DNA from: a virus
Strand: one strand, 5' to 3'
Length of the DNA: 29,679 nucleotides
IMG/VR virus record: IMGVR_UViG_3300030102_002068
Location: 493-30,171 of that record
The notes below the pieces were generated by a model. The model saw only the letters and a program-made list of their open reading frames with translations. It was not told the origin of the DNA and searched no databases. This document shows, piece by piece, positions 459 through 23,896 of the stretch; within the stretch, counting starts at the first letter, position 1, and each line of letters begins with the position of its first letter. A program made the translations under genes and the position numbers.

Positions 459-1158
459 AGTTAGACCTAGGCTTAGGGGACAAAAACTAGCCGCTTACAA
501 CAACCTTACAAGTAACGAGAAACGTTTATTGGTCGTGGGTGATATCCATGAACCTTTCTGTCTACCAGGATACCTTGATTTCTGCGTAGAGACATATCAA
601 AAATTTAACTGCAACGCCGTCCATTTCTGCGGGGATATCGTGGATAATCACTACAGCGCATATCATGAGACAGACCCAAATGGGCTCGGTGGGGGAATGG
701 AGCTTGACTTTGCGATAGAGAAGGTTCAGGAGTGGAATAAGGCATTTAAGCACGCCACGGTTTGTATTGGTAACCATGACCGATTGATTGGAAGGCGTGC
801 GTTCTCATCCAACATACCTAAGGCTTGGATTAAATCCTACAATGAAGTGCTTGGCACTAACTGGGACTGGCAGCCCCGCTTTGTTATTGATGGCGTGCAA
901 TACGTACATGGCGAGGGAGGGACTGCCCGTACTAGGGTAAAGAATGATATGATTAGTTGCGTACAAGGGCATATACATACGCAGTGCTACGTCGAGCATA
1001 TGTGTGGTCAGGATAAAAATATATTCGCTATGCAGGTGGGTTGTGGCATAGATAGGGAAAGTTATTCTCAAGCCTATGCTCGCAACTATAAGAAGCCTGC
1101 CATCGCTTGTGGCGTTGTCATTGGAGGCCACACCGCCATCAATGTGATGATGGATTAA
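451..1158 (+). CDS. Calcineurin-like metallophosphoesterase
   Basis: A 235-residue soluble two-metal phosphoesterase. All five motifs of the family are visible in order: D31-x-H33 (GDIHEP), G61-D62-x-x-D65 (GDIVDN), G107-N108-H109-D110, H153 in VHGE, and G173-H174-x-H176 (GHIHT). These residues form the bimetal site that hydrolyses phosphomono- or diesters; the substrate cannot be told from sequence. Such enzymes are common in phages and may act on nucleic-acid ends, nucleotides or protein phosphates. The length fits a bare catalytic domain. The ATG at 451 lies within the preceding small gene (8-base overlap), implying an operon. The TAA at 1156-1158 overlaps the stop of the giant gene converging from the right by 4 bases. 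Confidence 0.9.
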   Translation: MTEVRPRLRGQKLAAYNNLTSNEKRLLVVGDIHEPFCLPGYLDFCVETYQKFNCNAVHFCGDIVDNHYSAYHETDPNGLGGGMELDFAIEKVQEWNKAFKHATVCIGNHDRLIGRRAFSSNIPKAWIKSYNEVLGTNWDWQPRFVIDGVQYVHGEGGTARTRVKNDMISCVQGHIHTQCYVEHMCGQDKNIFAMQVGCGIDRESYSQAYARNYKKPAIACGVVIGGHTAINVMMD

Positions 1159-4100
1159 TAATCCCTAGCAATAATCTTTGCAATGTCGTTTGCTTCTTCA
1201 ATCCTATCCTCCTCTATTAACTTCGAATAAATACCTAGAAGCAATTCTTCTCTTCCTATTTCTGTATTGATGAAGTTTGCGTAAGGGCCATCTTTCGATG
1301 AGGTAGTTATTGTTGATGGGTCAAAAACATTCTTTCCATAAGTGTTTGACCAAGCATCTAATCCATAAAGTTCAAAGGCAATAATTTCATCTTGAATCGT
1401 GGTCGATGAATGGTGAGGAGATTTGTAGTCTAACATATACTTGACAGCTTCAGTCCTGTTGCCTACTGTGTTTATAACATTTGGTATATCCTTTTTGTTT
1501 AGTGGAGCGAGAGATGGCTCGTACGTTTTATCCTCCTCCTCCTTAGTAGGATACTTCACCTCTCCTCCACCATAAAGATTTTCCTTAGCATCATCCATTA
1601 CAATTTGGACATAGTCTATAAATCCTGGAATTTGAAGTGCATAATTACTCAAAGAGTATAGAACTACATCAGTTCTTGACTGACGCAAGCTATCCCTTCT
1701 TTCTTCGAGCTCCATTCTTTTCTTTTCATCTTTAATCACGAAGTTACCATCTTCATCAACTTCTTCTAGTTTACTATTTATTCTGCCTATTTCAGATTCA
1801 AGAGAAAAGAAAGTTTCTAACCTTTCCGCACTAACACCTAATTGCGGAGCAAGTATTCCAAATATCTCAGATTCAACATCAACTTCTTTACCTTCCGATA
1901 TTTTATCAACCAAAGTTCCTAGTCTGGAATAGTTAACAGAGTGCTCGTAATCTTTATATGTCTGTGTTTCAGGGTCGTAAGTTCCCAATAGGCTCGCTAT
2001 ATATTCTTCTTCCACTGCTTGATGAAAAACAAAAGAAACCAGTTGGTCTGATAATCCACCTCCACCACCTTTCGCTCCAAAAAGAATAGATTGGCCAACA
2101 CCACGCAGCATCTGCTGCATCGTTAATTCAGATTTAGATTCAGCCCATGCATTCAAATCTTCCTCGGAAACTGCGTACCCACTACCTGTAGCTTTGACCT
2201 CTTTGAGTTCTCTTATATCTTCAGGCACATCAGCATAGTTTTCGAAGAAGTACAATCCCTTTTCTTCGTCAAATGTTGCATCTTCAACAGCCTCATCTTC
2301 ATCATCTCCAAAGAAATATCCTACAACTTGAGGGATGATAGCTTTTGTTCCTGCGGTATAGAATGACATTCTGAATAAACTACCAGCCAAAATACCAACA
2401 GCTTCCTGCTTGGTCATATCTCCATTCTTGATGCCAGCTTGTATTGCTTGAGTTACTGTTTCATACTCGTAAGAAACGAAGTTTCTCATAAAAGAGTTTG
2501 CGGCTCTACCTACACCTCTTTCAGCACCTTCAGCACTACCTTTAAACGATTCCTTACCTAAGAAGGAGCTTATTGTGGCCGACTGTTGTATAGACTTCTT
2601 GTCCGCAAAGTTTCTAGCTCTTTCTATTGCATTTTTATTTTCACGCATGAAGGCCTCGTCGTTGTCTATTATCTTATTGACGTCTTCAGTTGTCATTGGA
2701 CGCCCCGTTATGCTTTCAAATTTTTGCTGAAACGAGCCAAACCAAATGGGGTTACCCAATGCTTGGTCTGGGACAGTCATGGCATAATCAGCCATTTTTT
2801 GCCCTCCTCGATATACGCCTCCCGCAAGCTCGCCTAATGCGCCGTATTCTCTGACCCCTAGTCCATCCGTAGAGGCTTCACCTGCACTTGCAGCGGCTAT
2901 TGTAGATGATGTAGTTAATCTACCTGTTTGAGATGAGCCAACATTTATAAGAAATGTAGCCCTTCTACCGTCCTTAAACATTCCATTCTTCCAAAGAAAT
3001 GCGCTTCCTTTTGCAGTTGATTTACCAAAACCAAACCCTGCCATACCAGCATTTGATATCAATTCAATGCCACCTCTCATACCTCCTCCAAGGCGAATAG
3101 CTACGTTAGCGGCGTAAATTTCTTCAAGAGCATTAAATGCTCCCATGTTGCTAGACACTCTAAGAACTCTGTTTAAGGACTGCTCCATTGTTTCTTGAAG
3201 TCCTTTTAGTTTTTTATACCTCTCATCTTTCTCAAACTTAGACCTGTCACCATCGTACTCATTTTCAATTTGAGACATAGCGGCATTGATATTCGCCCTT
3301 ACCTGCTTTAGTGCAGGTGTTAAGTGATAATCTCTTAATGTTTCATTAAATGCTCTATGCGCTGTTGTTATCGCATCAAAGTTTATTGATGGAGCGTCTC
3401 GATGAGAAGCCCTTCCGTGAGTCGTACCTCCTCTAGTACTTACTCCTGATGCAGAGTATTTATTCATGGCATCAGCCACCTCGGCGTCTATGCCCGCTCC
3501 GTCAACGTAGTGATGTGTGTATCCACTGAAAGATTGAGAACTACCACCTCTATATAATGAGCTTGCAGAGGCCGCATTTTCAGCATTCATAGTATTAACC
3601 TCTGTTATTATATCAAACGCCTTTTTCTCCGACTGCGTTAAGCCTATATTTTCAAATCCCTCGTCAAAAGTGACACCGTCTGTAAATACAGAAGCCATTC
3701 TATCTCTTACGATAGTTAGATAATCTCTTTCTGATTCACTTACATTAGGGTCGTTAATTCTAGCATCTAAATATTCAACCGCCGTAAACACCTTGCTACC
3801 CCTCATTGATGGATTTTGCTCCCACTCTCTTTGAAGTTCTAGTGCTTTAATTAAGGCTCTTGATATTTTTGTTTGCTCGGCTGAAGCAAAAGACATCCCT
3901 ACTCCTTTTACACCCTGCTTGTTTGATAGAAGTGAGGATGCTTCTTGAAGCTTTGACATCCCTCCTGCTAACTGCGCTTTGTACGTCTCATCAGCCGAAG
4001 CTAGCGTTCCGAATGTAGCATCAAAAATTGAGGTGTTATTGTAATTCCCTAAAAGCCTATCTACAGCTATCTTAGGGTTGATTCTTAGCAACTGATTATA

Positions 4101-7100
4101 GAATCCTTGAACCCCCTTTGTGCCTCCTATTATTGAAGGGATGATGTTCATAAACGCAGCCCTAATTCTTGAGAGCCTATTCATATCGGTTACATCCGTA
4201 GCCTTAGATGCAGAGACTCTAGACGCAATGTCCGCTCCAACTTTGTTTGCTTTTATTTTAACGCTAAGCTCGAAGGCGTTATTAGATACAAACCCATTGT
4301 TTATGTTGTCCATCACATTAGACAATAAAACTTGGTCTTTGAGGCTTAAACTATTGAAATCTTCCTCCGTTAAGTTTAATAACTCACCAGCAACATTCCT
4401 AGAATCTCTGTTAGGTATTTTAGCCAACATTCCTTCTCCTCCATCCTTATAAGATTCAGAATAGTTAAATACATTTTCCTTGGCCTCATTGCTAATTCTC
4501 TGAGCCTCCTCTTCAGACATACCCTCTTTCTCTACAGCTTCGCTAACTGCAATTTCACCTTCATCTATATTGTTGAATATAGACTCCGCTTGTCTAAGCA
4601 TAACATCTCTGTCATTTAGCGGAAGCTCCTTGGCTCTAGTGCTCATATCACTAGCCATATTCTTATACCTATCTAGATAGGTGTATGATATGTCATCTCT
4701 GTTGACGTTTATCTCGGTTCCATCTTGAAGCCTGATGGCTACCCCATCCATATCCTCCATTACAACCGTAGCCTCAGCCCCATTGTACATTACCTTCTCC
4801 CCAGCTAAAAGCTCTGAGCCATCCATAACATTCCCATCCTTGTCATAAATAGCCCTAACCTCTTCCATTGATACGTCAAGAGGATTTACACCAAACAATG
4901 TGTTAAGGGCGTTTGTAAGTAATGGGTCAGCCCCTAGCTTTCCTCTGCCAACATTTGCTTTTGCTTTTTGCCTATTAGAGTTTACTTCAGCTATCTCTTC
5001 CTTAAACTTCTTGTCAGATATCATTTTATCAATCTTCTCTTCAGCTCTTGCTGCTTGAACCTCATTGGTGAAGTCTGTGGTTGATAGGATTCTCATCAAA
5101 GACCTAGTCTGAGCGTTAGACAATGTAATGCCAGCCTCCTTGAGCATTTCTATTGCATCTAGCCCAGCAGTAGCAGTGGCTTTTCTCTGCGTCATCTTAC
5201 CTTGTCTACCAGCCCTCTCTTCTGCTTTATATTGGTCTCTAAGGGCTTTGAATTGGTCAACTAAAACCTTCCCTTTGTTTTGATTGATAATCTTAGCCGT
5301 CTCTCTTTCCACCCTAGCCCTAGCGTCTGCATTGGTCATATCAGTTCTAGCGACAAGGTCATATATTCTTTTCGACTGCGCAGGGGTTAGGAAGATGCCA
5401 TTCTCTTTGAACTGCTCATTGATTTTGGCAATCATATCTCGCTCAGCTTTCTGCTGTTCACCTACAGCCAATTTACCTGCCTTTTCTTGAAGCTCTAACT
5501 CTTTCTTCATCTGCTCATACGAGTCGACAACCATCTCCGTACCAGTCATTTTCTCTGGTCTACCTTGAGCCTCAGTTAGGCTGACACCCATTTCGTTTTT
5601 GACCATATCTATGATTTGGCCTCTAGTCTCTGAGTCACCCTCTTGATAAGCCTTCGTGCCTCTAGCATACGCCAAGGCATTCTCGTATTGCTGCTCCTCT
5701 AGAGTTGTGCCCATAGCCTTCTCCTCGTTCCACCTTTCTTTGGTCTTATCGATAACTCGCTTGACCTCCTCTTGTATTCTTTCAATAGGAGCCTCGGGGT
5801 CTGATTCTGCTACAAGTTCTGCTTCTGAATTTGTGCCGTCTATACTAGCCTCTAGTTCTTCGACTCTAGCATCTACGGCGGCTTTCATTTCTTCTTGAGC
5901 CTGAAGTTCTGCCTCTGCATCAATGTTTGTCTGAACGCCATATTGGTCAATGCGCATAGGTGAGCCCATCTGCTCAAGTGACTCATTGATAGTACCGACT
6001 AGGTCTGCATCAACTTGGTCGTTCTTGTTGACGTACTGCTTGTAAAGTTCAACTGCTGTTTCAGGGTCAGATAGAGTGATGGCCTCCTTGTATTCTTCAT
6101 AGGTGACATCTTCACCTGCCCTAATCTTTTCTGTTATGTTATCTACCTTTTCGTTGGCAGTCACACTCACGTCCTCCTCAGTTACAGGAGCCTCCTCAGT
6201 TACAGGAGCACCCTCTTCTGTTGTAGTCTCCACACTTACACGCTGAGAAGAGCCCATTGCCTCGTAACCCTTGTTTATTATATCTACCATATCACCCTCA
6301 ATGAGTTGATAGTTGATATTATTGGCAAGAGCCTCATTGTGTATCCGCTCAGCAGTCTGAGGGTCGTTTTGATTCACAAGGGACTCTACTAATGCTCTTA
6401 ATTCAATCATAGGTATCGACCCTGCCCCCTCTTTTAAATATTTATCCTTAACATCAGCGATGTTAGACTGGTCAGTAAATTTATTACCAGTTTCTCTGTT
6501 GAAGTTTGTGTAGTCTTCACCTGTAACAATGTATTGCTTCTTCCCTAGCCCAAGTAATCCACCTCTTTTTTCTGTGTAGTTGAGACCTTCTGGTGGAATT
6601 TCATCAAACACATAAGAACCATCTTCTTGCTTCTTACCTTTACCTAGGGCATCCATTTTCTCTCTGAGCGCCTCGGCTTCATCTCTATTTTTCTGAGCAC
6701 CTAAGTCTCCTTCTTGAGCGGCCATAGCCATACTTGGTTCACCCTCTATAGTCACTACCTCACCGACTGCCCGCCCAGTGGCAACGTCCCCAGCCATTGC
6801 CTCGATGAGAGACTTAGCACTAGCATCTGTATTAACTTCGGTTACTAATCCAAACTTGGCTGAAAGCTTATTGAAGAAGCTTGCGGATTTGTCTGTTACT
6901 GCCTCAACATTAGTATTGGCTGAAACAATACCAAAGAATTGAGCTACAGTTTCTCTGCTTATATCCCCAGACTCGTATTGCGATACAAACGATTCTAATT
7001 GAGCTTTAGTATCTGCATCGACATCGTTCATAATGTCGTTAGCAAGTGCAACCATATCAACCTTAAAGGCTTGGTCACTATTCATAGAGTTAAATATAAT

Positions 7101-10100
7101 CGCCTCAAACACCTCGTGGCCCACAGTAGTTTTGTCTGCCTTTGCTGCGTTAATGTGAATTACATTGTACTCTGGGTCAAATGCTCCCCTTCCGTTTGTG
7201 CCTGTGGCCGAAACAAATGAGCCTTGGTCTGTGTGAACTTGAAACTTAACGCCAGGAAAATTTGCTGATAGAGATTGTCTAGCAGACTCTATCTGAATGT
7301 CTATGGCATTTATTTGGTCTCCATTAGCTTTTGTTTTTCTATCTAAATCAGTTACTTGGTCAGCATATTTTTCAGGGTCTCCTATAAATACTTTAGAAAC
7401 GCCAAACATTCTAAACTTTGTTTTTTGGTCGTCTAATTGAGCAGCCAACCCAGCGTCTTTTTCAGATATATATACCAATCCGCCGTCGTAACCCGCTTCT
7501 AGGTACTCTATCATTTGCTCTTTACTGACAACCTCTCCGTCAATAACGTAGTCATTGTCGGCAACTGCCTTTTGATGCGTCTCGTTAAGGTTCATCAAAT
7601 CTTTGATGTCAGACTCAACTTGCTCTAATGAAGCCTCATATCCTTCGGGCTTTGTTCTATTTAATAAATTTCTTTTCGCATCTAAAAGTAAATAACTACC
7701 AATGGCATCAACGCTCATGTTTATGCCATTAAGTTTTTTCATTGACTCGTAAATACTTCCATTTGCTTGTAAAAGTTTTGCGGCTTGGTCTAATGTTACG
7801 AGGCCCTTGTTGCTATACTCCTTTACTAATTGACTAAACTCATAAGGGTTACTAGCCATCATATAGGCAAGCATAAGGTTTCTTGGTTGCGACATATCTG
7901 CATCAGTAGAGCCATCGCTCGCAGCACCCATAACCGCTGCAGTCAAAAATATTACTCCATTTTCGGCCATGCCATCTACAGTGGTAAATTGTCGCACCGC
8001 AGATAAAAAGTTCTCTTGGTATTCAAGACCAAAAAGTGCCCTCGAAAAATCCTGAAGACCTGTTTCAACACCTCTTTCTTGAATAACCTCACCTGTCCCA
8101 AAACCTACTGCTCGACCTACACCAGAACCGAAGTTGCCGAATCTTGTTTTAATACCAAGCGAAAGCGCATTTGCGTTGGGCACAAATCTAGACGCACCCG
8201 CAAACAATGTTGCATACGTAGCCCTTGCGCCAATTTGTCTCCAAAACGGCTCATTTCTGTCTAACTCTAGTCCAATACCAAAGGCGGGGATTCCTAGCTG
8301 TAGCATTTGAAGGCCAACAGCATTTGTCATGCCAATGCTTCTAAGTCCCAAACCCACTAACCCCCCTCCAGTCGCAAAGGCGGCTATGCTTATTGTGCCC
8401 TGTTCAACAGCGTTGAGAATAGTGTTGCCAACGCCCGTTTCGCCCTCGAAATCAGCATTTATCATCGAACCCGATAATAGCAATTCTCCATCTCTTCCTA
8501 TACGTGCTAAAGGGCTATCATTATAGGAAACAGCTCCAGATTCAAGTCTAAAAGTAACCCCACTTGGCTGGTATGGGGAAACATTAAAAAGGCTATTACT
8601 AAGCCCTGCATCAGACCTCATTTGCAAAAGCGACGCCTCTTTATCGTCGACGCCACGATACCTATACAACGATAGCGCAGGGTCTATAAACATGTTTAAA
8701 AACATTCCAACATATCTAGGCGCTTCACCTAAAATATTTTCAGTTCCCGAAAAAGACCCTGAAGTACTTATGAAAGGGTTATTCTTAAACGAACGAACAT
8801 ATTCTTTTCTCGTCTTCTTATCCATTTCTGGATACAAATTCTCTAAATATGATTCGTAATCCTTAGGGCTGTTTGGGTCTCCACCAGCGCCTAAGTAGTC
8901 TCCTTTTGTAAAATGTAATGTTGACTCAAAAACAGCATTTTGATAGGTCTCCGAGCCTAGAGTATCGCCTAAAACTTTGGCTGCAAATTCTGGCGTGTGC
9001 CTCATGCTCTTAATGAAATTTACATTGTCTGCTATTCCATTTATCAATGCCCTTTGAAGGTCTAACTTCTCTGGGGTCATAACGTTACCCTCGTTATCTA
9101 AAATTGGCTCACCTTTGTCATTCAGAAATGGAGTGCCAAAATCAACAACGCTGACAGCATCTAGCAATTCTGAGTAGTAGTTGGTGACAAAAATCATCCC
9201 CATCTCCTCTTCACTTATGTCAACCCAAGCATCATGAGTAAGTTCTTCCTTTCTTCTAGTGCTCTCTGGAAACAAGTAATCCTTCATTCTCAGAAAGATA
9301 TTCCCATCACGCATATCCTCGCCTATCTGAACCCAATCCTCACCAGATACTGTTTCAGTGAACGCCTTAAACAAGTCTTGCGCTCCGTATTCGAGCAACT
9401 CCTCTACTTGGTATACTCTCTCATAGGATTCATTTGCGGCCTTCCTATTGCTCTGAACCTCCATAATGAAGTCTATAACATCACTTTTAAATGGTGCTGC
9501 GTAACCCTTTGCTGTATTTTCTAACAAGAATTCAGCTTGGTCTATGGGGGTCTCAAAGTCTTGGAATAGACCGTTTATTACATCAAATCCTTTCGCAATA
9601 TCAAGCTCATCTCTGAAAAAAGCAAAAACCATTTCTGGGCTCATATCTTCTCCTTGAAGAGCCTCAATTCCTTGAAATATTTCCTCGCTGCTTATACCAA
9701 AAAGACCTGCCATATTCAAATAGCCATAAAGCTTATTGGTAACCTCTTCTAGTTCTTTTGTCTCATCTTTCGAAAAGTTCCCTAAGAAGAGTTGATTTGC
9801 TATGTTTTCGGATAGAATCCTGTTTTCTATTTGCGCTAGTGGTTTTTCCTGATATTCTTTTTGAGATGCCGCAAATGTTATCCTACCGTATTCTTCGTTG
9901 TATATTATTACGGCCTCGTCGTCCTCCATGAGTTTGTTTATGAGGAATACTTCCTTGGGAAACTCGGAAAGAGACGATGAAATAGTGCCATCTGGCGTCA
10001 TAGAATATGCCTGAGCAGAATTAATTATTTTATTCTGTGTCTCTTGGTCTAGATTATCAAACTCATCCTTTGTAAGAGAAAAAGTGCCATTGCCTTCGTC

Positions 10101-11066
10101 GTTCCAATCTGCTAGAGATTTAACATTTACATCGGCCTCATAGTCCAATATACCAGTTGCAAGGGCTAACTCTCTTGCGTCAGCATCAAAAATATTAATG
10201 CCACTTGTGCCTATTCGACTTGTTATTCTTTCAGCATCTCTTTGTGTTTGTTTTATGTTTCTCTTGTCGAATGCCGCAGGACCAGGAATAAACACTCCAT
10301 TGCCTAAGTCCAAAACCGAAGGAGCTCCTACGAAAACATCACTGCCTGGATTCATTCTGTAATATTCAGAGTCAACTACTCCATTTGCACCTGTTCTTAT
10401 ATTCGTAGATGAAATCATTGGAGTAACAAGAGACATCATGTTTTTAGGCATGCCACTTTCATCGAAGTAGTTTGATATTGGGCTAAACCCCGTGGGGCTG
10501 TCCTGACTATATCCTAATGATTGATTAGACACAAAAGTGCCGTCCTCCATCTCAGTGTAGTCAACCTTCGGTGCAAAATTATATTTAGACAATAAGTTTC
10601 TCTGCGCTATAGCTCTGTCTATCCCAGTTGAGTTATTGAATTCTTCTAGAGATTTTAGTTGAAATTGCTCATACTCCGCAACGTTTGAGTGTATTGGAGC
10701 TGATTCTAGGCTTCTTATAATAGGCTCATTTTCTCTCCCATTGTTATTATACTTTTGCATTACGGGATTTAAAAACAAACTGTTTATACCACCCATAAAA
10801 CTTGCGGCCAAAGCTTCTGAATTTACCAAATCTGGCTCATCGTCAATCCCCGCCATATAATTACTATAACTGTTTGCATCACGCCTAGCCTTAAACATTC
10901 TCATGTTATAGTCGAGTCGCTGAGCAGGAGTCATTTTAAGGAACATCATGTTCCTCATATGTTCAATCGACCGAGAGGGTTTTGGCGACTCGACGGTAGA
11001 ACCTTCGCCTGACGTACCTTCCTCTCCTTCCCCAGGGATGTTATTTAAGTTGTTTTCTTCAATCAT
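1155..11066 (-). CDS. Giant polyvalent internal virion / ejection protein with zincin-like region
   Basis: A 3303-residue protein, the last gene of the virion operon. The ATG lies 8 bases inside the end of the 582-residue gene. Visible parts: an acidic, glycine-rich N-terminus; a hydrophobic Gly/Ala-rich stretch at about 880-930 that could touch membrane; a metallopeptidase-like region with HEVFE at 1317-1321; two about-97-residue related modules near 1568-1605 and 1667-1702, separated by an APVTEE tandem linker; helical repeats centred on 1827, 1890 and 1979; a small beta segment near 2060-2130; and a C-terminal region (about 2655-2925) resembling the conserved domains (such as LPD38) of phage and prophage large polyvalent proteins, with another hydrophobic patch near 2900-2920. 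I see no RNA-polymerase DxDGD motif and no lysozyme domain. By position and size it most likely enters the cell with the DNA, like T7 gp16, but that role is inferred. Confidence 0.75.
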   Translation of the reverse strand: MIEENNLNNIPGEGEEGTSGEGSTVESPKPSRSIEHMRNMMFLKMTPAQRLDYNMRMFKARRDANSYSNYMAGIDDEPDLVNSEALAASFMGGINSLFLNPVMQKYNNNGRENEPIIRSLESAPIHSNVAEYEQFQLKSLEEFNNSTGIDRAIAQRNLLSKYNFAPKVDYTEMEDGTFVSNQSLGYSQDSPTGFSPISNYFDESGMPKNMMSLVTPMISSTNIRTGANGVVDSEYYRMNPGSDVFVGAPSVLDLGNGVFIPGPAAFDKRNIKQTQRDAERITSRIGTSGINIFDADARELALATGILDYEADVNVKSLADWNDEGNGTFSLTKDEFDNLDQETQNKIINSAQAYSMTPDGTISSSLSEFPKEVFLINKLMEDDEAVIIYNEEYGRITFAASQKEYQEKPLAQIENRILSENIANQLFLGNFSKDETKELEEVTNKLYGYLNMAGLFGISSEEIFQGIEALQGEDMSPEMVFAFFRDELDIAKGFDVINGLFQDFETPIDQAEFLLENTAKGYAAPFKSDVIDFIMEVQSNRKAANESYERVYQVEELLEYGAQDLFKAFTETVSGEDWVQIGEDMRDGNIFLRMKDYLFPESTRRKEELTHDAWVDISEEEMGMIFVTNYYSELLDAVSVVDFGTPFLNDKGEPILDNEGNVMTPEKLDLQRALINGIADNVNFIKSMRHTPEFAAKVLGDTLGSETYQNAVFESTLHFTKGDYLGAGGDPNSPKDYESYLENLYPEMDKKTRKEYVRSFKNNPFISTSGSFSGTENILGEAPRYVGMFLNMFIDPALSLYRYRGVDDKEASLLQMRSDAGLSNSLFNVSPYQPSGVTFRLESGAVSYNDSPLARIGRDGELLLSGSMINADFEGETGVGNTILNAVEQGTISIAAFATGGGLVGLGLRSIGMTNAVGLQMLQLGIPAFGIGLELDRNEPFWRQIGARATYATLFAGASRFVPNANALSLGIKTRFGNFGSGVGRAVGFGTGEVIQERGVETGLQDFSRALFGLEYQENFLSAVRQFTTVDGMAENGVIFLTAAVMGAASDGSTDADMSQPRNLMLAYMMASNPYEFSQLVKEYSNKGLVTLDQAAKLLQANGSIYESMKKLNGINMSVDAIGSYLLLDAKRNLLNRTKPEGYEASLEQVESDIKDLMNLNETHQKAVADNDYVIDGEVVSKEQMIEYLEAGYDGGLVYISEKDAGLAAQLDDQKTKFRMFGVSKVFIGDPEKYADQVTDLDRKTKANGDQINAIDIQIESARQSLSANFPGVKFQVHTDQGSFVSATGTNGRGAFDPEYNVIHINAAKADKTTVGHEVFEAIIFNSMNSDQAFKVDMVALANDIMNDVDADTKAQLESFVSQYESGDISRETVAQFFGIVSANTNVEAVTDKSASFFNKLSAKFGLVTEVNTDASAKSLIEAMAGDVATGRAVGEVVTIEGEPSMAMAAQEGDLGAQKNRDEAEALREKMDALGKGKKQEDGSYVFDEIPPEGLNYTEKRGGLLGLGKKQYIVTGEDYTNFNRETGNKFTDQSNIADVKDKYLKEGAGSIPMIELRALVESLVNQNDPQTAERIHNEALANNINYQLIEGDMVDIINKGYEAMGSSQRVSVETTTEEGAPVTEEAPVTEEDVSVTANEKVDNITEKIRAGEDVTYEEYKEAITLSDPETAVELYKQYVNKNDQVDADLVGTINESLEQMGSPMRIDQYGVQTNIDAEAELQAQEEMKAAVDARVEELEASIDGTNSEAELVAESDPEAPIERIQEEVKRVIDKTKERWNEEKAMGTTLEEQQYENALAYARGTKAYQEGDSETRGQIIDMVKNEMGVSLTEAQGRPEKMTGTEMVVDSYEQMKKELELQEKAGKLAVGEQQKAERDMIAKINEQFKENGIFLTPAQSKRIYDLVARTDMTNADARARVERETAKIINQNKGKVLVDQFKALRDQYKAEERAGRQGKMTQRKATATAGLDAIEMLKEAGITLSNAQTRSLMRILSTTDFTNEVQAARAEEKIDKMISDKKFKEEIAEVNSNRQKAKANVGRGKLGADPLLTNALNTLFGVNPLDVSMEEVRAIYDKDGNVMDGSELLAGEKVMYNGAEATVVMEDMDGVAIRLQDGTEINVNRDDISYTYLDRYKNMASDMSTRAKELPLNDRDVMLRQAESIFNNIDEGEIAVSEAVEKEGMSEEEAQRISNEAKENVFNYSESYKDGGEGMLAKIPNRDSRNVAGELLNLTEEDFNSLSLKDQVLLSNVMDNINNGFVSNNAFELSVKIKANKVGADIASRVSASKATDVTDMNRLSRIRAAFMNIIPSIIGGTKGVQGFYNQLLRINPKIAVDRLLGNYNNTSIFDATFGTLASADETYKAQLAGGMSKLQEASSLLSNKQGVKGVGMSFASAEQTKISRALIKALELQREWEQNPSMRGSKVFTAVEYLDARINDPNVSESERDYLTIVRDRMASVFTDGVTFDEGFENIGLTQSEKKAFDIITEVNTMNAENAASASSLYRGGSSQSFSGYTHHYVDGAGIDAEVADAMNKYSASGVSTRGGTTHGRASHRDAPSINFDAITTAHRAFNETLRDYHLTPALKQVRANINAAMSQIENEYDGDRSKFEKDERYKKLKGLQETMEQSLNRVLRVSSNMGAFNALEEIYAANVAIRLGGGMRGGIELISNAGMAGFGFGKSTAKGSAFLWKNGMFKDGRRATFLINVGSSQTGRLTTSSTIAAASAGEASTDGLGVREYGALGELAGGVYRGGQKMADYAMTVPDQALGNPIWFGSFQQKFESITGRPMTTEDVNKIIDNDEAFMRENKNAIERARNFADKKSIQQSATISSFLGKESFKGSAEGAERGVGRAANSFMRNFVSYEYETVTQAIQAGIKNGDMTKQEAVGILAGSLFRMSFYTAGTKAIIPQVVGYFFGDDEDEAVEDATFDEEKGLYFFENYADVPEDIRELKEVKATGSGYAVSEEDLNAWAESKSELTMQQMLRGVGQSILFGAKGGGGGLSDQLVSFVFHQAVEEEYIASLLGTYDPETQTYKDYEHSVNYSRLGTLVDKISEGKEVDVESEIFGILAPQLGVSAERLETFFSLESEIGRINSKLEEVDEDGNFVIKDEKKRMELEERRDSLRQSRTDVVLYSLSNYALQIPGFIDYVQIVMDDAKENLYGGGEVKYPTKEEEDKTYEPSLAPLNKKDIPNVINTVGNRTEAVKYMLDYKSPHHSSTTIQDEIIAFELYGLDAWSNTYGKNVFDPSTITTSSKDGPYANFINTEIGREELLLGIYSKLIEEDRIEEANDIAKIIARDY
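6173..6208 (-). repeat. Perfect 18-bp tandem duplication in the giant gene
   Basis: Two identical adjacent copies of an 18-base unit (plus strand CCTCCTCAGTTACAGGAG), encoding APVTEE twice, followed by a weaker related stretch (TTEEG). It lies in the acidic linker between two related modules of the giant protein and probably arose by slippage. Confidence 0.8.
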
Positions 11067-12807
11067 TAGTTATAAGCTTTGATTGGTACTGTTCTTGTAT
11101 CAGTGCGTCTATTTGTGATGAAGTAGCATCTACAGGTATTACTGCAAGCTCATTATCCTTATTATCCCTGACGACATAATCACTGCCCTCAATACTAGTT
11201 TTTAGAGTTCCATCTACTCCTTTTTGATACGCCAAAGCAATAAATGCTCTATTAAGTATTGCCTCGTTAATTATTCTTATTTTATCTGGGTCGTCTCCAG
11301 CGTCTTCCCACTTATCGCCCCATCCTAAGTTAGGAGCAGGAACATCAAGCCTAACAGGTTTACCATCCTCCGTTTTCATGTATGCATTGACTTCACCACC
11401 TGACGAACTTTCAAAGTTGCTTGAACTTCCACCACCCTTAGGTGCTTTGGCCATCCCTGACATGTTGTCTGTAGCATATGAGCCATCTGCGTGCCCCCTG
11501 TAAACCTCGTTATGATATTGACCTGCCCCTACTTGCGTGGCAATAGAAGCGAAGAGCTGCTCTCTGTTCCCGCCGTCTCTAGTAAGACTGGTTCCCTGCG
11601 CACCTACAGTCATATCAATAAAATCTCCTGAGTCGTCAACGCTTATGTCTAAGCCTGTGGCTGATGCCACGGCGTTTAGAGAAGCAGGGTTTCCTGTAGC
11701 AAGGAAGTCGTCTAGACTTTGGTAAATTAAACTTAATTGGTCTCTCTTTGGTTTTTCTGGGCTTCTTGGCTTCTCCTTAAATTCCATTGTTTTCGTTGTC
11801 TGAACATCTATTGCATCCGACAAGAACTCAACAGCCTTGGCCCTAACCTCTTGCCAACCCTTACTATCCATAGCTGGAACAAGATTGCCCCCTTGGTTTA
11901 TAAACACAAGCGCATTGGGGTCATCCATTTTCGACTCGTCCGTGGTGTATCTATCAAAAATATCTTCTTGAAGATGGTCAGAAGCCATTGATTGTAGTTT
12001 TGATGGGCTATCAACTATTGAACTAATAAAGTCTTCCTTCGCAGGCTGATAAGCTGCGTTAAACTGCTCGCTAGTTTCATTTAATCTAATATTTCCTTGG
12101 GTTACCGCCCCTATCTCATCGACAAATGCTGTTACATCAGAAAAGTAGTCATATGCGGTAAACATCTGCTGACTCATATTTATCAGATTACCCATTGACT
12201 GAAGGCTATTAGTCTCGTATGGCATAGTAGGGTCTCCAGTGGTAAACACAACCCCTCCTGTACCATCTTTACCTATAACCAATTCTGTGCCCCCAAAGTC
12301 CATATATCTACCCGTATGCTGAGTAAGCCACTCATCACCTTTACTAAGTATCGAGCCCCCATCTATTGGGTTCCCTTCCTCATCAACACCCATTCTCATC
12401 TGCTCTCTCTTAGTAACAGCCTGATTGTATTGAGTGGTGTAGTTCTTAAAGTTGGTTACCGTGCCCTCTGTGTTTGATAGATTTCTCTTAAACTGAGCCA
12501 CTGAAATCTGTCCACTCTTTAGGAGTTTCTCTTGAGTCAGTAGGTATTGCCTCATATTGTTGGCGCCCTCAAACATCCAGTTATTAAACTCAACGTCCAT
12601 CCCAACGTCTAAGTTGTCCATAGTGGCAAGCGTCGTAGATATGTTCTTATCTATCTCTGCTTTTGCCGCCATTCTGCGGTCACGCTCTATATTGATAAAG
12701 TCTACGAACTTACCCGTAATCTCAGACCAATCTATTACGTCCTTACTTACATCTCTAGGAGCCCTAGTGAAAAAGTCTAATTGTTGAAAGTTTTGATTTA
12801 TTGCCAC
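11059..12807 (-). CDS. Probable internal virion protein (582 aa)
   Basis: 582 residues, with no domain I recognise. The first half is helical and charged (a Lys/Glu/Gln-rich stretch near 90-130), and there is a Gly/Ser-rich linker near 450-470. No signal peptide or clear membrane span. The start is a GTG at 12805-12807 whose G is the last base of the upstream TAG, giving a TAGTG junction; no better ATG lies nearby, since the next methionine is about 45 residues in. The TGA lies 8 bases inside the giant gene. Sitting between a small amphipathic protein and a giant one, it is the middle member of a three-gene set that recalls T7 gp14-gp15-gp16. A role as an ejected core protein is inference from this arrangement only. 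Confidence 0.75.
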   Translation of the reverse strand: MAINQNFQQLDFFTRAPRDVSKDVIDWSEITGKFVDFINIERDRRMAAKAEIDKNISTTLATMDNLDVGMDVEFNNWMFEGANNMRQYLLTQEKLLKSGQISVAQFKRNLSNTEGTVTNFKNYTTQYNQAVTKREQMRMGVDEEGNPIDGGSILSKGDEWLTQHTGRYMDFGGTELVIGKDGTGGVVFTTGDPTMPYETNSLQSMGNLINMSQQMFTAYDYFSDVTAFVDEIGAVTQGNIRLNETSEQFNAAYQPAKEDFISSIVDSPSKLQSMASDHLQEDIFDRYTTDESKMDDPNALVFINQGGNLVPAMDSKGWQEVRAKAVEFLSDAIDVQTTKTMEFKEKPRSPEKPKRDQLSLIYQSLDDFLATGNPASLNAVASATGLDISVDDSGDFIDMTVGAQGTSLTRDGGNREQLFASIATQVGAGQYHNEVYRGHADGSYATDNMSGMAKAPKGGGSSSNFESSSGGEVNAYMKTEDGKPVRLDVPAPNLGWGDKWEDAGDDPDKIRIINEAILNRAFIALAYQKGVDGTLKTSIEGSDYVVRDNKDNELAVIPVDATSSQIDALIQEQYQSKLITND

Positions 12808-13640
12808 TATATGTCTTTATCGGTTTCTGATGCCTGCGATATAAATTGATTATTATACGCCTCTGTTCCATATAGAGGGATTCCTGGAGCTAAAGCATCA
12901 GCTGCGCCAAATAGACCTGAAACCCCTGCAGCCAAGTTTTGCTGTCTAGACGCTCTTAATCCCTCTGCTCGCTCTCTTAAGAACTGAGATTCGCCACCAT
13001 ATAGACCCGCCATCTGCTGCGCTACGTTCTGCTTCTCTTGAATTATAGCCTCATCTCTAGCTTGTATCTGCTTGGCTTGTTCAGCCGCTAATCCAAACTG
13101 CTGTGCCGCTACTCCACTCTGAATGGCTTGTGCGGTTGCCTGAGCAGCCCTTGGGCCTGCGGCTTGTGCCGCATCAGTTTGCTGTGCCGCCGCTACTTGA
13201 GTACCCCTCATTGCTTCGTCAAAAGCCATATTGTTAATCCTTAACTCTTCTGATTCGAGCTTGCCAATCTCAGCAATGGCCTTGTTCATCATCCTCTGAG
13301 ATTTCATCTCATCCTGCTGAGCCTGCCTCTTGTCTTTTATTGCCCTAGCGAAATTTACGATTCCCCCTATGACAGAGGATGCCGCGCCAATAATAGGCAT
13401 TGCCGTTCCTACGGCGCCACTAATCTTGTCTAGTAGGCCTACAGGATTAGTTGTTACAGGGTTAGCGCTACCAGAAAGGCCAGAGGCGCCAATGTTTTGA
13501 AGCCCTAAACCGCCACCAAGTTGAGTATTGTTTTGTAGCTGTTGACCGAATGAAAGGCCTCCACCCCCGCCGAGTGAGCCACTAGTCATATCGGGTATGG
13601 TTATTTTAGTGCCATCGGCTAATGTTATTTCGTTTGGCAT
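12807..13640 (-). CDS. Probable small internal virion / ejection protein (277 aa)
   Basis: 277 residues. The N-terminal 65 are rich in Gly, Asn, Gln and Leu. Residues about 75-100 are a hydrophobic, Gly/Ala-rich segment that could span or insert in a membrane, followed by a basic patch (KDKRQ). A long Ala/Gln-rich helical region (about 105-240) looks like a coiled coil. This design (one hydrophobic helix plus Ala/Gln-rich coiled coil) is typical of small podoviral ejection proteins such as T7 gp14 or P22 gp7, but I see no specific sequence match. The ATG is at 13638-13640 and the gene ends in TAG overlapping the GTG of the next gene. The 32-base gap upstream holds a perfect inverted repeat and a promoter-like box, so this cassette may have its own transcription start. 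Confidence 0.75.
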   Translation of the reverse strand: MPNEITLADGTKITIPDMTSGSLGGGGGLSFGQQLQNNTQLGGGLGLQNIGASGLSGSANPVTTNPVGLLDKISGAVGTAMPIIGAASSVIGGIVNFARAIKDKRQAQQDEMKSQRMMNKAIAEIGKLESEELRINNMAFDEAMRGTQVAAAQQTDAAQAAGPRAAQATAQAIQSGVAAQQFGLAAEQAKQIQARDEAIIQEKQNVAQQMAGLYGGESQFLRERAEGLRASRQQNLAAGVSGLFGAADALAPGIPLYGTEAYNNQFISQASETDKDI

Positions 13641-13646
13641 AGAAAA

Positions 13647-13667
13647 AGTATATTTTACAAATATACT
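13647..13667 (-). repeat. Perfect 9-bp inverted repeat in the gap before the 277-aa gene
   Basis: AGTATATTT, a three-base centre and AAATATACT form a perfect dyad filling most of the 32-base gap between the 289-residue and 277-residue genes. The stem is almost all A/T and no T-run follows on the minus strand, so it is not a standard terminator. The TATATTTG promoter candidate lies inside it, so it could be an operator-like site, a weak hairpin in the leader, or chance in AT-rich DNA. Confidence 0.5.
13658..13665 (-). promoter_or_regulatory. Candidate -7 element (TATATTTG) ahead of the ejection-protein cassette
   Basis: On the minus strand TATATTTG matches the TAnnTTTG -7 consensus of Bacteroidota primary-sigma promoters, 17 bases before the ATG of the 277-residue gene. 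I see no TTG at the expected -33 distance, so this is a half-match. The same eight bases occur in the gap before the 104-residue gene. Confidence 0.3.
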
Positions 13668-13672
13668 AAAAA

Positions 13673-14542
13673 CTACGGCTTACTCTCCATATAGTCGGCT
13701 TCTACGGCATATACTTCAGCCCTAGATGTTGTGTTTAAACTTAGGTCTATTTCCATAATGTGACCTGTAATACCCGCAGATTCATTTTCACTAGGCCTTG
13801 CAGCAACAGATATGTAGTCTCCAGGCGCAGGTGGAGGAGGCGGAAATGGAACTGAATAGTCAACAAACAACTCTATCGCCACCTTGTCTTTTCTGTTAAT
13901 TATTTTGGTAATACTCCCTGTTTGACCTCTGTTTACGTAGACCAAATCATTAAACCTTATAGATGGGTTTATTGGGAATCCTAACTCATACTGAATAACA
14001 GTGTTAGATATTGGGTTCTCAGGCGTGTATCCAATAACACTTGTCTCGCCTGTAGGTGTGCCCACAAAATAACTTACCGAAGCAGGAGCCGTACCCACAC
14101 CCTTAAAGAATCTAACATTATCGTCGTATCCAACCTGCTTTATGTACGCAAAGTGTGCGTTCTCCTTCTTAACAAAGGTCACTGTAGTTCCTGAGTTCAT
14201 ATCAGTCTCAAGGCTAGTCCCAAGGTTAGAAGACGCATCAACCTCTGCCAAAGCTCTAATGGCTTTAAACACTTTAGATGTTATGGGTGTTCCATTAAAA
14301 CAAGTCTTTACTCTTGGCGTCACATATGGGAAAATTGACCCATCACCATCTATAGACTCCTCTAGGTAAAATGTAGCCCTCCCATTAGTGTCTGTATTGT
14401 GAATATTTAGGTTGCCATTCTTAAATGAAAAAAAATCGCTATTCATCCCAGTCATATACTCAGGATAGAACGAGTAAAAGGAAACCCATCCGCCCACATT
14501 GTCATCCGATGATGTTGGTGTATATGTAACTGTATATGCCAT
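13673..14542 (-). CDS. Hypothetical tail-type virion protein (289 aa)
   Basis: 289 residues, predominantly beta-type sequence with many Thr, Ser, Asn and Gly. The N-terminus (MAYTVTYTPTSSDDN, then GGWVSFYSFYPEYM and FFSFKNGNL) resembles a segment I recall from structural proteins of Bacteroidota podoviruses, but I cannot name the family with certainty. A PFPPPPPAP run near residue 235 separates the body from a short C-terminal domain. No signal peptide or membrane helix. The ATG shares a base with the amidase stop (TAATG), so translation is probably coupled; the gene ends in TAG. Position after the tail-hub and amidase genes suggests a tail or muzzle-associated part. It could also be an adhesin-related protein. 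Confidence 0.75.
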   Translation of the reverse strand: MAYTVTYTPTSSDDNVGGWVSFYSFYPEYMTGMNSDFFSFKNGNLNIHNTDTNGRATFYLEESIDGDGSIFPYVTPRVKTCFNGTPITSKVFKAIRALAEVDASSNLGTSLETDMNSGTTVTFVKKENAHFAYIKQVGYDDNVRFFKGVGTAPASVSYFVGTPTGETSVIGYTPENPISNTVIQYELGFPINPSIRFNDLVYVNRGQTGSITKIINRKDKVAIELFVDYSVPFPPPPPAPGDYISVAARPSENESAGITGHIMEIDLSLNTTSRAEVYAVEADYMESKP

Positions 14543-15420
14543 TATAGTTCTGTTAACATGATTAGTAATTCTTCCTGAGGGAACATATCACTCTTACCCT
14601 TGTTGGTGTTAGAATGCGACAGAAGACCCTTAATTTGCCCGTAGTACGCTTTCTCGTTCCATTCGAAGGCATCAGCCCCCTTTTCTTTTATAAGGGCAGG
14701 AAGGCCCTCTCTGACGTTTATGTTGTCTCTGTCCGCAATGAATAATATCAACTTCCGTAGTGACTCAATCTGAGCATCAGAATATCTATGCCAATTCTTA
14801 TACCCCTTGAACTCCTTTGCTAACTCGACTCTGTGGTCTTCGTGAACAGTATGTCCAGCATATGTCTTGCCATTATTTAGATATCCAAAGTTGCACACCT
14901 CAATACCTACGCTGTTTTTATGCATTTTGTGCTTTCCGTTTTTACCTAAATGCCAAGCATAGCCTCCGTCGGGGATACACTTCACAATCTCACCATCGTA
15001 TTGCGAATCATCGTTAAATATAGATGGGCCACCCAAAACAAACTCGGTTGCAATTCGCCCTCTGTCGTCTCTGCCCCAATGGTCAATAGTGCGGTATGGG
15101 TTATGCCATCCTGCTGTGTGGTGAATAAATAGCCACTCTTTTTTAGTTGGGCCTTTAAGGTATTGACCCTTAGGTAGTATATGGTGGTTAATAACAATTC
15201 CGTGTTGACTGTCTAGTGACTCTTGAATATCTGTAGTTAGTCCAAACAACTCAGCCCAAGTCTTAGGGCCCACAATACCATCAACATCCAAGTCCTCTTC
15301 TCGCTGAAACCTCATAACCTTAGCCTCTGTTATAGGGCCAAAGATGCCATCAGCCTCAATGCCGAGCTCCTTCTGAATCTGTTTTACTTCTTCTCCTGTA
15401 TGTCCTTTTCTTATTAGCAT
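14542..15420 (-). CDS. N-acetylmuramoyl-L-alanine amidase with peptidoglycan-binding domain
   Basis: A 292-residue cell-wall hydrolase. Residues 1-60 form a PG_binding_1 domain, with the typical repeat DGIFGP (24-29) and DGIVGPKTW (47-55). Residues about 90-285 form an Amidase_2 (AmpD / T7-lysozyme-like) zinc amidase that cuts the bond between MurNAc and L-Ala. FIHHTAG gives the first zinc histidine (H100), GGYAWHLG (152-159) lines the site, and SH-x5-GKSD gives H269, K276 and D278 as expected for the second histidine, catalytic lysine and zinc aspartate. No signal peptide. The ATG is one base after the TAA of the tail-hub gene, and the TAA overlaps the next ATG. It could be a virion-borne hydrolase or the endolysin; no holin or spanin is seen in the window. 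Confidence 0.92.
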   Translation of the reverse strand: MLIRKGHTGEEVKQIQKELGIEADGIFGPITEAKVMRFQREEDLDVDGIVGPKTWAELFGLTTDIQESLDSQHGIVINHHILPKGQYLKGPTKKEWLFIHHTAGWHNPYRTIDHWGRDDRGRIATEFVLGGPSIFNDDSQYDGEIVKCIPDGGYAWHLGKNGKHKMHKNSVGIEVCNFGYLNNGKTYAGHTVHEDHRVELAKEFKGYKNWHRYSDAQIESLRKLILFIADRDNINVREGLPALIKEKGADAFEWNEKAYYGQIKGLLSHSNTNKGKSDMFPQEELLIMLTEL

Positions 15421-15421
15421 A

Positions 15422-18400
15422 TTATGGATTAACTGATGTTATTACACCATTGGTATCTACATCTATACTAGAAACTCCAGCCACTCCTACTGTTACGTGG
15501 TTTCCATTACTAAGTTTTGTAGAACCATTAGCGTCTGTAAATACAAAATCTCTCACAGCAGGTGTGCCTCCTGTGCCCCCTGTGAAGGTAGAGTGAAAAA
15601 CATTTGTTGGGCCTGCAATTTGAAATGAAGGTAGCGATGCAGGGCATAAAACATCTATATTGAATAACTGAGACTTAACCAAGAAAAGGTTAATTAGTAG
15701 CCTAGATGGCGTCGCAGTTGTCTTAGGAATAACCATCACATACTCAGCCCCTCCAGTCACAGACGTTACCTCTCCACTGTTGACCACTAAGTTTTGAGTG
15801 CCTCCTAAGTTATAGTTTGTTCCATCCCACTCTTTTATTGTGAAAGGTATGGTAGCACTTCCCGAAGATGGCAATGGAGCAAGAACCCCGTTGTACGACC
15901 AAAACTTCTCTACAAATCCATCGCGAGACGATGTGTATGAATTATAGGTGCTACTACCCAAACTAGCCAACATCATGCCTGCGTGGTCAGGAGTTGAAGA
16001 TAGAGCTCCACTTAGGTCTTGATTAGGCCTTAGCCTTACAATAACCGCCCCTGTTGCGGCGTTAAGTTCTACAGGGAACTTATATAACTCTTGCGCCTGA
16101 GAAACGCTGTCTCCGCTTTCACCAAAGGTACTACAGTCCTCAGCACAGGTAGGGCACGTAACAATGTCTGCCAATGCGCCTGAGTTTACGTAGTACGCAA
16201 CCCCCTCCTCAAGGCTATATAGACCATCCGAAGCCGACGTAGTCATATTGGGAGTTGTAAATACTCCTGTAACTTTGTTTTTGTCGTCTGCATCTATATA
16301 ATAAATTGATGTTGAAGAGCCTGCACAGCATACATCATAAAGGTCATCATCAAAAGAAGTTACAGGCGACACCTCATTAAATGTTCCCACTCTAGTATTT
16401 CTTAAATCCCAAATAAGATACAGGTAGTCTTCGCCAGTGCTCCTAGTAAAAGGGAACTCTCCGAAATACCCATTCCCCGCACCATTCGCTGTTACTGTAG
16501 ATATAGTGGTGGTGTCTGGGTGAGACAATATAGTCTGTATATCGGAAGATGTATACTGCGTACTAGAAATTAAGTGCTTAAAGTTGTGCCTAGTGCTCGT
16601 AGTCATATCATCCAAGGTGAATGACTCAGTATTGAAAGCAGCCATCCTTATGTCATCACCCACCGCAGGGACAATACCATTGCCAGGTAGTCCTGCCGTT
16701 CCGATAAACTCACTAGCGAAAGCACCCACTCCAGAGCCACAGCTGAACATTCCACCCTCCGAAACCATATATCCTCCTGACTCAATTCTTGAAGCATTAT
16801 AGCTCACTTGAGAACCATTCTTCTCGTCACTTGTAAGCATTATATAGTATACATTTAGCCTGTCTGCCGCTGGGCAAGGAGCTACAACCTTAAAGCTTCC
16901 CATAAGTCCAGATGGGTACGCCATATTCAGGTTAAGTCTTGTTGGTTTTGCTGACGTCTTAGTAAACGTGTACGTAGTATCCGTAGTTATTGGAGAGCCA
17001 CTACCACCCTTAGCAACGCCATTCCATGTAATGGTAGGAGTAACACCAACAGCCGCTGCCTTTGTTATCTCATATGGGTCCTCTACCGTGAATATGCCAC
17101 TGCTTAATGATATCTCCGTCTCAGAAGTTACTGCGGTCACGTTAGCTGTCTGACCCGTCCTTTTGTTTCTTAATTGACACGCAGTCGTGACTCCATCAGT
17201 TACAAACGTAGCGTTAGTGTCGATAAGCCTTAGCGAGTCTGCGGCACTTATAATAGTATAAGGCTGTCCTTGCGATATGCCTATTTTTGAACCGAAACCT
17301 AGCTGTGTATCAGAATCAATAGTGACAATTGGTAGAGCAGTTTGTGTCGAGTCAACTCGGACGACATCGCCCACCACTACTGATGTGGTAAAAGTTTGCG
17401 ACTCATCAATAAGTTTGTTAGTAGCTCCCGTCTCGGTTGCTGTTCCCGTAACTTTTGGAGTAGGATTGCTGGTTACATCACCATCATCGACAAAGTCTCT
17501 TATGTTTTCAATGTCAACTTCAACCGCTATATCTCCAACAGTATCGCCAACCTCTATTTCAGTGTCAGTTGTGCTCCCCCCCTCAGCTATTTCGCTATCA
17601 ATAAATCTGTTTATAATTACATTACAAGGCTCTATAAAAGTAGGGGCTGGTAAATTTCTACCCGTGCTAGATAAGACATACTCCTGAGAGTGCTCGTCGT
17701 ACTCTCCCAAAGTAACCTTGTTTATAGAGCTCTTCAAGGAGTCTCTGAAGTAAGACTTCATACCTACGTTGGACACTATCGCTATCTGGTCGTTCTGACC
17801 TCTAGCACCCGTTCCTGAAACTCTTATTACTGCACCCCTTTTGGCATCAGTAAAATAATAGTCGTATCCATACTTGGCAAAACTCTCAGCATTTCTACTA
17901 ATACCAAACTCCTCTGGTCTTGGTAATTGATTGCCTAAAAAAGTATTTGATTTAGCAAGCAGTTCGCTGCCTTGCTCGTCTGACAATATATTTTTAGACA
18001 CTAGTACCCTAGATATTCTGTCTTCTTGAAGAACCAATATGTCTTCGCTCCTGTCAGCTAAAATCATTATCTCTCCAAAGTTCTTATCAAGGTCTTTGTA
18101 GTTGATATCCGCTAGATTAAACTCATTAAGAGAATTATAGTTTGTCTCATCGTTAAAAAAGCCACTATAGGTCATTGATGCGAATCTATCAGCCTCCTTG
18201 TATTCTGTATCAACTTCGATAGATACTCGCTCCCCTAAGAAGAACTTGTGAGAAGCCACCCTGTCACCTACACTTAGTGATTCTACGCCATTGTAGAATG
18301 TGTAGCAGTTGTGGAAGTTTAAGTCGCATATAGCGTCTGCGCTAGTAGCGGTGTCCTGGTCCTGAGTGTTTCCTTTATGAACTAGTTTACCTGCGCCATC

Positions 18401-23189: not shown

Positions 23190-23208
23190 AACGCTAAAGA
23201 TACAAAAT

Positions 23209-23233
23209 AAAAAAGGGGTCGAAACCGACCCCT
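23209..23233 (-). terminator. Rho-independent terminator after the 88-aa gene
   Basis: Read on the minus strand, an 8-bp perfect stem AGGGGTCG / CGACCCCT with a GTTT loop is followed at once by TTTTTTATTTTG. It lies 21 bases past the TAA of the 88-residue gene and ends the small-protein transcription unit before the connector genes. Confidence 0.9.
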
Positions 23234-23254
23234 AGTTATTGATAAGCGTTTGGA

Positions 23255-23521
23255 TTATACCGCAGCAATCTCATTCACAGCTCCACTCGGCAAATCAATT
23301 GTAATTGATGGCTCTGTGTATCCCTGAGACCAAACCTTTTTTACAGCGTCATTAAACGCAATGACATCCGCTCCTGCTGTGCTGCCACTTGCATTGCTAA
23401 TGCCAATCTGCTTGTCAAGATATGAAACTCTCAAGTTTGCCCCTGAGCGTGATACGTCGTAAATATCAGCACTAACAATGAATTGAGCTCCTGTGCTATT
23501 TAAAATAATAAACTTTTCCAT
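23255..23521 (-). CDS. Small virion protein, paralogue of the 104-aa protein (88 aa)
   Basis: 88 residues, beta-type, acidic, no membrane segment. The opening MEKFIILNSTGAQFIVSAD mirrors that of the upstream 104-residue protein (MNKYIDIANSAGSARTVRAT), and both carry a central Asp/Ala helix (AFNDAVKKVW here, DAFAIGKAIAD there) and a final hydrophobic strand. I take them as paralogues. Their leaders are also alike (19 of 22 bases). Proteins of this size and style often follow the MCP gene in marine phages and may decorate the capsid, but that is an inference. A strong terminator follows directly, consistent with high, separately controlled expression. Confidence 0.7.
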   Translation of the reverse strand: MEKFIILNSTGAQFIVSADIYDVSRSGANLRVSYLDKQIGISNASGSTAGADVIAFNDAVKKVWSQGYTEPSITIDLPSGAVNEIAAV

Positions 23522-23524
23522 GGT

Positions 23525-23546: not shown

Positions 23547-23550
23547 CAAT

Positions 23551-23865: not shown

Positions 23866-23867
23866 AT

Positions 23868-23889: not shown

Positions 23890-23896
23890 TACTATG

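What the first reader, a model, noticed from the sequence alone, without database searches (positions are those of the whole stretch)
6930..7200. Zincin-like region of the giant protein appears to have lost two metal ligands
The segment FDPEYNVIHINAAKA followed by GHEVFEAII looks like the strand and active-site helix of zincin metallopeptidases found in phage large polyvalent proteins. The helix reads H1317-E-V-F-E1321, where the family motif is HExxH. About 55 residues later SRETVAQFFG has Gln1376 where a third-ligand glutamate (as in a VAE motif) would be expected. Both changes at once suggest a pseudoenzyme that keeps its fold, or an altered metal site (HExxE).
Basis: partly seen in the sequence, partly recalled or inferred. 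Interest (0 to 1): 0.6.

Follow-up and report, generated by a model that had tools for sequence, protein, structure and literature searches.

The report
Phage zincin domain with rewired metal site
A huge protein that a marine bacterial virus probably carries in its particle contains a protein-cutting-enzyme fold in which one metal-holding histidine and the neighbour that should steer it were exchanged together for an oppositely charged pair; the pair is kept by all four related viruses found, so it looks like a retuned or repurposed site rather than a decaying one.

Summary
The sequence facts are right: H1317-E-V-F-E1321 and Q1376 lie where stated in a 3303-aa ORF. Homologues support a gluzincin-type domain, and HExxH is the family rule: 96 of 100 non-redundant relatives have HExxH. 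The only four with HExxE (window, L005, L016, L017) form one clade.

Q1376 is unlikely to be a lost third ligand. The residue four before it, E1372, is invariant (100/100), is the second Glu of an EE tandem, and matches the metal ligand of ArdC (E229) and PPEP-3 (Glu197). Gln at 1376 also occurs in nine normal HExxH members, eight of them with Asp at 1311.

So one ligand changed, not two. A paired change was missed: residue 1371, Glu or Asp in 96/96 HExxH members, is Arg/Lys in exactly the four HExxE members. In ArdC the matching Glu orients that histidine. The general-base Glu, the Tyr and the other two ligands are kept. The block is the best conserved of the protein's first 1500 residues (dN/dS about 0.05-0.12 in the three closest).

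Best reading: a conserved, rewired site (His-Glu-Glu, or a Glu-Arg pair replacing metal), not decay. Metal content and activity are untested.

The parts
1155..11066 (-). giant protein, 3303 aa, putative virion/ejection protein
   Evidence: homologous to the 3694-aa Elemovirus 'structural protein' QMP85339.1
6777..7382 (-). gluzincin-like domain, approx. residues 1229-1430
   Evidence: alignments A4/A7; AF2 model and fold matches
7149..7163 (-). strand VIHIN, residues 1302-1306, before the active-site helix
   Evidence: DSSP of the model; matches GAYDPE..ILIN of IrrE
7134..7136 (-). D1311, associated with Q at 1376 across the family
   Evidence: listed as '1310' in the script output; the residue is 1311
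7104..7118 (-). active-site helix motif H1317-E-V-F-E1321 (HExxE in place of HExxH)
7104..7106 (-). E1321, in place of the second metal-ligand His (His in 96 of 100 relatives)
6975..6977 (-). Y1364, conserved Tyr 8 residues before E1372, 99/100; candidate oxyanion Tyr
   Evidence: PPEP-3 Tyr190/Glu197
6954..6956 (-). R1371, in place of the Glu equivalent to ArdC E228; Arg/Lys only in HExxE members
6951..6953 (-). E1372, most likely true third metal ligand, 100/100
6939..6941 (-). Q1376, probable second-shell residue (Glu in 87, Gln in 13 of 100)
11059..13640 (-). two ORFs (582 and 277 aa) upstream of the giant gene, in the position of N4 gp51/gp52; candidate co-ejected proteins
   Evidence: gene order only

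Best explanation
The domain is a gluzincin-type metallopeptidase domain inside a giant phage protein, probably packaged and ejected, in a podovirus group related to Elemovirus and Cellulophaga phages. In one lineage the second metal-binding His of HExxH is Glu (E1321), and the Glu that in ArdC orients that His is Arg/Lys (R1371): a His-Glu pair became Glu-Arg/Lys. The first His (1317), general-base Glu (1318), Tyr (1364) and third-ligand Glu (1372) are kept. I infer that the site still works as a site: most likely it holds a divalent metal through His1317, Glu1321 and Glu1372, with Arg/Lys1371 steering or neutralising Glu1321, and does a narrowed cleavage such as processing of the giant protein itself. 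Shown: homology, the paired changes, single origin, purifying selection. Inferred: third-ligand assignment (strong), side-chain pairing (from ArdC), metal binding and cleavage (not tested).
For: 100 non-redundant relatives: H1317 100, E1318 100, E1372 100, Y1364 99. Of the columns at least 97% conserved in the 96 HExxH members, the HExxE clade departs at two only: 1321 and 1371. HExxE arose once on the tree, support 99-100. A pattern scan for HE[VI]FE found only the same three contigs. Residues 1301-1400 are 85-86% identical to L016/L017 against 27-48% over residues 1-1100; block-minus-upstream identity is 0.31 in the HExxE pairs and 0.23 in 38 sampled pairs of HExxH members. dN/dS over the 77-codon block is 0.055-0.061 (NG86) or 0.105-0.124 (YN00). 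ArdC: H201, H205, E229 bind the metal and E228 orients H205 (PMC7213743). PPEP-3: His153, His157, Glu197, tandem Glu196/197, Tyr190 (PMC12828418). Fold matches: M34 peptidases Z about 7, IrrE Z 4.9; N4 vRNAP zincin domain Z 6.2 for the HExxH member; viral giant proteins E down to 2e-8.
Against: Foldseek against PDB gives no match under E 0.001, Z about 7 is in the range of chance matches, and pLDDT in the third-ligand helix is about 65. Only four HExxE sequences exist, three of them close. Keeping H1317, E1318, Y1364 and E1372 by chance at an average column is about 0.35^4, or 1.5%, and likelier for buried columns. A non-enzymatic role could be under the same selection. Nothing shows metal or proteolysis.
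Confidence: 0.45

Rival explanations
1. Conserved pseudoprotease: the site no longer binds metal. E1321 and R/K1371 form a salt bridge that replaces the metal as the tie between the two helices, and the domain serves as a scaffold, packing or regulatory module of the giant protein.
For: Exchanging a ligand and its partner for an oppositely charged pair is what a metal-replacing salt bridge would need. The ArdC E229A mutant, expected inactive, still supports conjugation to P. putida, and the N4 vRNAP C-terminal region that holds its zincin domain inhibits the polymerase allosterically, so these domains can matter without cleavage. Constraint is high, which also fits a structural role.
Against: The general-base Glu1318 and Tyr1364, whose known role is catalytic, and the two other ligands are kept in 4/4.
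Confidence: 0.42
2. One reading: Q1376 is the mutated third ligand, so two ligands are lost at once.
For: The column is Glu in 87/100 and lies in the right helix.
Against: E1372 is invariant and in the EE tandem of ArdC and PPEP-3, whose second Glu is the ligand. Nine HExxH members also have Gln at 1376. The IrrE alignment (model 29-157 on chain 32-126) would put E1372 at IrrE residue 113, a zinc ligand as I recall it, if ungapped at its end.
Confidence: 0.06
3. Drift or assembly error in a domain that is no longer needed.
For: HExxE is rare: four contigs.
Against: Same changes in contigs of separate metagenomes, open frames, strong purifying selection, best-conserved block of the first 1500 residues.
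Confidence: 0.04

Closest known systems
MPTase domains of phage polyvalent proteins, including the N4 vRNAP C1 domain (PMC5512222, PMC12633501)
   Same: zincin strand plus helix and later Glu helix inside a ~3500-aa phage protein encoded with virion genes; the HExxH member aligns over 1-207 with N4 gp50 2129-2366
   Different: HExxE with Arg/Lys before the third ligand; the variants that paper describes are HExxxH and added His/Asp residues; sequence similarity to the N4 domain is very weak
ArdC C-terminal metalloprotease domain (PMC7213743)
   Same: HExxH helix, E228-E229 tandem whose second Glu binds the metal and whose first orients the second His
   Different: second His and first Glu both replaced here; no Pfam domain of ArdC found in the giant protein
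Pro-Pro endopeptidases / M34-like fold (PPEP-1, -2, -3)
   Same: fold match Z about 7, Glu tandem, Tyr 7 residues before the ligand (8 here)
   Different: canonical HExxH; secreted. PDB 6r55 is an engineered PPEP-1 E184K, Lys in the first Glu of the tandem, a man-made parallel to R/K1371
IrrE / peptidase M78
   Same: best PDB sequence match of the profile, strand and helix (E 0.013); fold Z 4.9
   Different: HExxH intact; a repressor-cleaving regulator, not a virion protein
Zincins with substituted HExxH sites (CLCA and others, PMC3650047)
   Same: conserved, non-random substitutions of HExxH
   Different: second-His changes reported as enriched are to Lys, Arg or Leu, not Glu with a compensating partner

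Membership tests
gluzincin metallopeptidases (HExxH + Glu) | HExxH on the active-site helix | tested here: not met
   window has HEVFE; 96/100 relatives have HExxH
gluzincin metallopeptidases (HExxH + Glu) | third-ligand Glu on a following helix | tested here: met
   E1372 invariant 100/100, EE tandem as in ArdC and PPEP-3; by sequence register, not by measured geometry
gluzincin metallopeptidases (HExxH + Glu) | zincin fold | tested here: inconclusive
   best rows are zincins, but Z about 7 and Foldseek E above 0.1 against PDB
gluzincin metallopeptidases (HExxH + Glu) | metal-dependent proteolysis | not testable with these tools
   needs biochemistry
phage polyvalent-protein MPTases | zincin domain within a giant protein next to late virion genes | tested here: met
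   3303-aa ORF, portal and capsid genes nearby; viral fold matches
phage polyvalent-protein MPTases | match to a Pfam large-polyvalent-protein model | tested here: not met
   full protein: no LPD or MPTase hit; domain alone: LPD29 at E 0.013, below its cut-off
N4 virion RNA polymerase | single-subunit RNA polymerase module in the giant protein | tested here: inconclusive
   no Pfam RNA polymerase hit in the window protein; no structure of the rest was predicted

The most novel reading that the evidence does not exclude
A naturally evolved His-Glu-Glu metal site in a gluzincin: the second His ligand was replaced by Glu and its orienting Glu by Arg/Lys, giving an active enzyme with a different metal or chemistry, perhaps reached through a D1311/Q1376 state still seen in HExxH relatives.
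Probability: 0.35. Interest if true: 0.7.

Novelty: new variant of a known kind. Interest (0 to 1): 0.5.

Why it matters
Zincins with a broken HExxH are usually set aside as dead. Here a paired first- and second-shell change is held under strong selection, with HExxH relatives in the same phage group, including culturable Flavobacterium phages, as controls. That makes testable whether a metallopeptidase site can be rewired to one His and two carboxylates, and what zincin domains in giant virion proteins do.

Tried and rejected
Pfam and PHROGs on the full protein: nothing significant. DNA-level search in phages: nothing. Single-sequence scan of viral contigs: nothing confirmed; it took a two-row alignment to reach relatives. 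An early idea that D1311 occurs only with Q1376 was refuted by an unbiased scan: D occurs with E in 12 of 24, though Q is far commoner with D (12/24) than without (1/76; Fisher 3e-8, not corrected for relatedness; phylogenetic pairs about 4:0, too few for significance). Foldseek on the HExxH model alone gave globin-like noise. A capsid-guided search for nearer relatives added no HExxE member; L151 (90% capsid identity) has no zincin match on its 15.6-kb contig. The R388 record for ArdC was not held. The main paper on PPEP-1 E184K was not held. 'HEXXE' in an M35 paper (PMC7215534) is probably a misprint of HEXXH (my judgement).

Full report
OBSERVATION. The window carries a 3303-aa ORF on the minus strand, 1155-11066. 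The window is most of a 30,171-bp virus record. Neighbouring genes encode a portal, a capsid-type protein and other virion proteins.

FAMILY. tblastn found the giant structural proteins of Flavobacterium Elemovirus phages (E 2e-9). Their 3694-aa protein has HEIFH exactly at HEVFE. Iterated scans of viral contigs gave about 80 loci; a pattern scan and a capsid-guided search gave more. After removing rows over 97% identical, 100 domain sequences remained. The capsid protein's named relatives are phages of Flavobacterium, Cellulophaga and Maribacter, so the host is probably a member of the Bacteroidota (inference).

WHAT VARIES. H1317, E1318 and E1372 are invariant (100/100), Y1364 is 99/100. The second His is His in 96 and Glu in 4: window, L005, L016, L017/L123. 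These four form one clade (support 99-100). A scan for HE[VI]FE with any residue at 1311 returned only the same three contigs besides the window. Residue 1371 is Glu in 95, Asp in 1, and Arg/Lys in exactly the four HExxE members. Among columns at least 97% conserved in the HExxH members, only 1321 and 1371 differ in the HExxE clade.

THE THIRD LIGAND. In ArdC the ligands are H201, H205 and E229, and E228 orients H205 (PMC7213743). In PPEP-3 they are His153, His157 and Glu197, in a Glu196-Glu197 tandem, with catalytic Tyr190 (PMC12828418). The family has the same tandem, EExLAE, and a Tyr 8 residues before its second Glu. So E1372 is the likely ligand, 1371 the residue that orients the second His, and 1376 second shell. 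This rests on motif register and invariance; I had no model coordinates.

Q1376 AND D1311. Gln at 1376 occurs in 13 of 100: the four HExxE members and nine HExxH members. With Asp at 1311 it is 12 of 24, without it 1 of 76. The tree needs about 8 changes at 1376. The sample was enriched for Asp by the scan; the comparison is conditional on Asp, so that does not create it, but relatedness is not removed (pairs about 4:0). Gln alone is therefore no sign of a dead enzyme. A path through Asp1311/Gln1376 before the His-to-Glu change is plausible but not shown, because deep branches are weak.

FOLD. The AF2 model of the window domain (78 sequences, mean pLDDT 70.7; 80-95 up to the active-site helix, about 65 in the third-ligand helix) gives weak Foldseek matches in PDB, led by IrrE (E 0.3). 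VIA-align places M34-type peptidases first (Z about 7, PPEP-3 7.0) and IrrE at 4.9. The HExxH Elemovirus model matches the N4 vRNAP zincin domain over its length (Z 6.2) together with PPEPs, but helical bundles score as high. In BFVD, giant viral proteins match to E 2e-8, including an Elemovirus protein. Profile search of PDB sequences gives IrrE first (E 0.013) over the strand and HExxH. Each is modest; together with the motif pattern I regard the zincin assignment as sound.

SELECTION. In the HExxE clade residues 1301-1400 are 85-86% identical to L016/L017, while residues 1-1100 run at 27-48%. The excess over upstream sequence is at least that of 38 sampled HExxH pairs (0.31 against 0.23). 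dN/dS over 77 codons is 0.055-0.061 (NG86) or 0.105-0.124 (YN00) among the three closest. The altered site is not decaying.

MECHANISM. His-Glu became Glu-Arg/Lys at two positions whose counterparts touch in ArdC. Either the new Glu is a metal ligand steered by the base (His-Glu-Glu site), or the new pair is a salt bridge in place of the metal. Retention of Glu1318 and Tyr1364 tilts me slightly to the first. The likely job, by analogy with polyvalent-protein MPTases, is processing of the giant protein or of a host protein around ejection (PMC5512222); N4 vRNAP, however, is packaged uncut (same paper), so cleavage is not a given.

NOVELTY. Substituted HExxH sites are known, with second-His changes enriched for Lys, Arg or Leu (PMC3650047). 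I found no described natural HExxE gluzincin with a compensating second-shell exchange; my paper searches were few. New variant of a known kind.

Noticed in passing
window 5067-6266 (residues 1601-2000): This stretch is 83-97% identical to L005 although L016 is the closer relative in the zincin domain; it suggests a recombined segment of the giant gene.
   Followed up: partly
L017, giant ORF 6740-15361: L017 has no counterpart to window residues of about 1640-2000 and its ORF is shorter (2874 aa), so that segment looks dispensable or exchangeable.
   Followed up: no
L085:6497-15334: The giant ORF holds a second HExxH-type domain (HEVQH, residues 1439-1584) after the main one.
   Followed up: no
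L244:741-12320 (MW202828.1): The giant protein of the closest named capsid relative lacks this domain by HMM but has two HEFGH motifs, perhaps another zincin type.
   Followed up: partly
window 11059-29573: Gene order giant protein, two mid-size ORFs, tail genes, capsid, portal resembles phage N4 (gp50-gp51-gp52 to capsid and portal), suggesting a three-part set of ejection proteins.
   Followed up: partly
window 14542-15420: ORF with endolysin-type and amidase matches lies among the virion genes.
   Followed up: no
family alignment, columns of window residues 1311 and 1376: Asp at 1311 goes with Gln at 1376 (12/24 against 1/76), hinting that these side chains touch or share a charge.
   Followed up: yes
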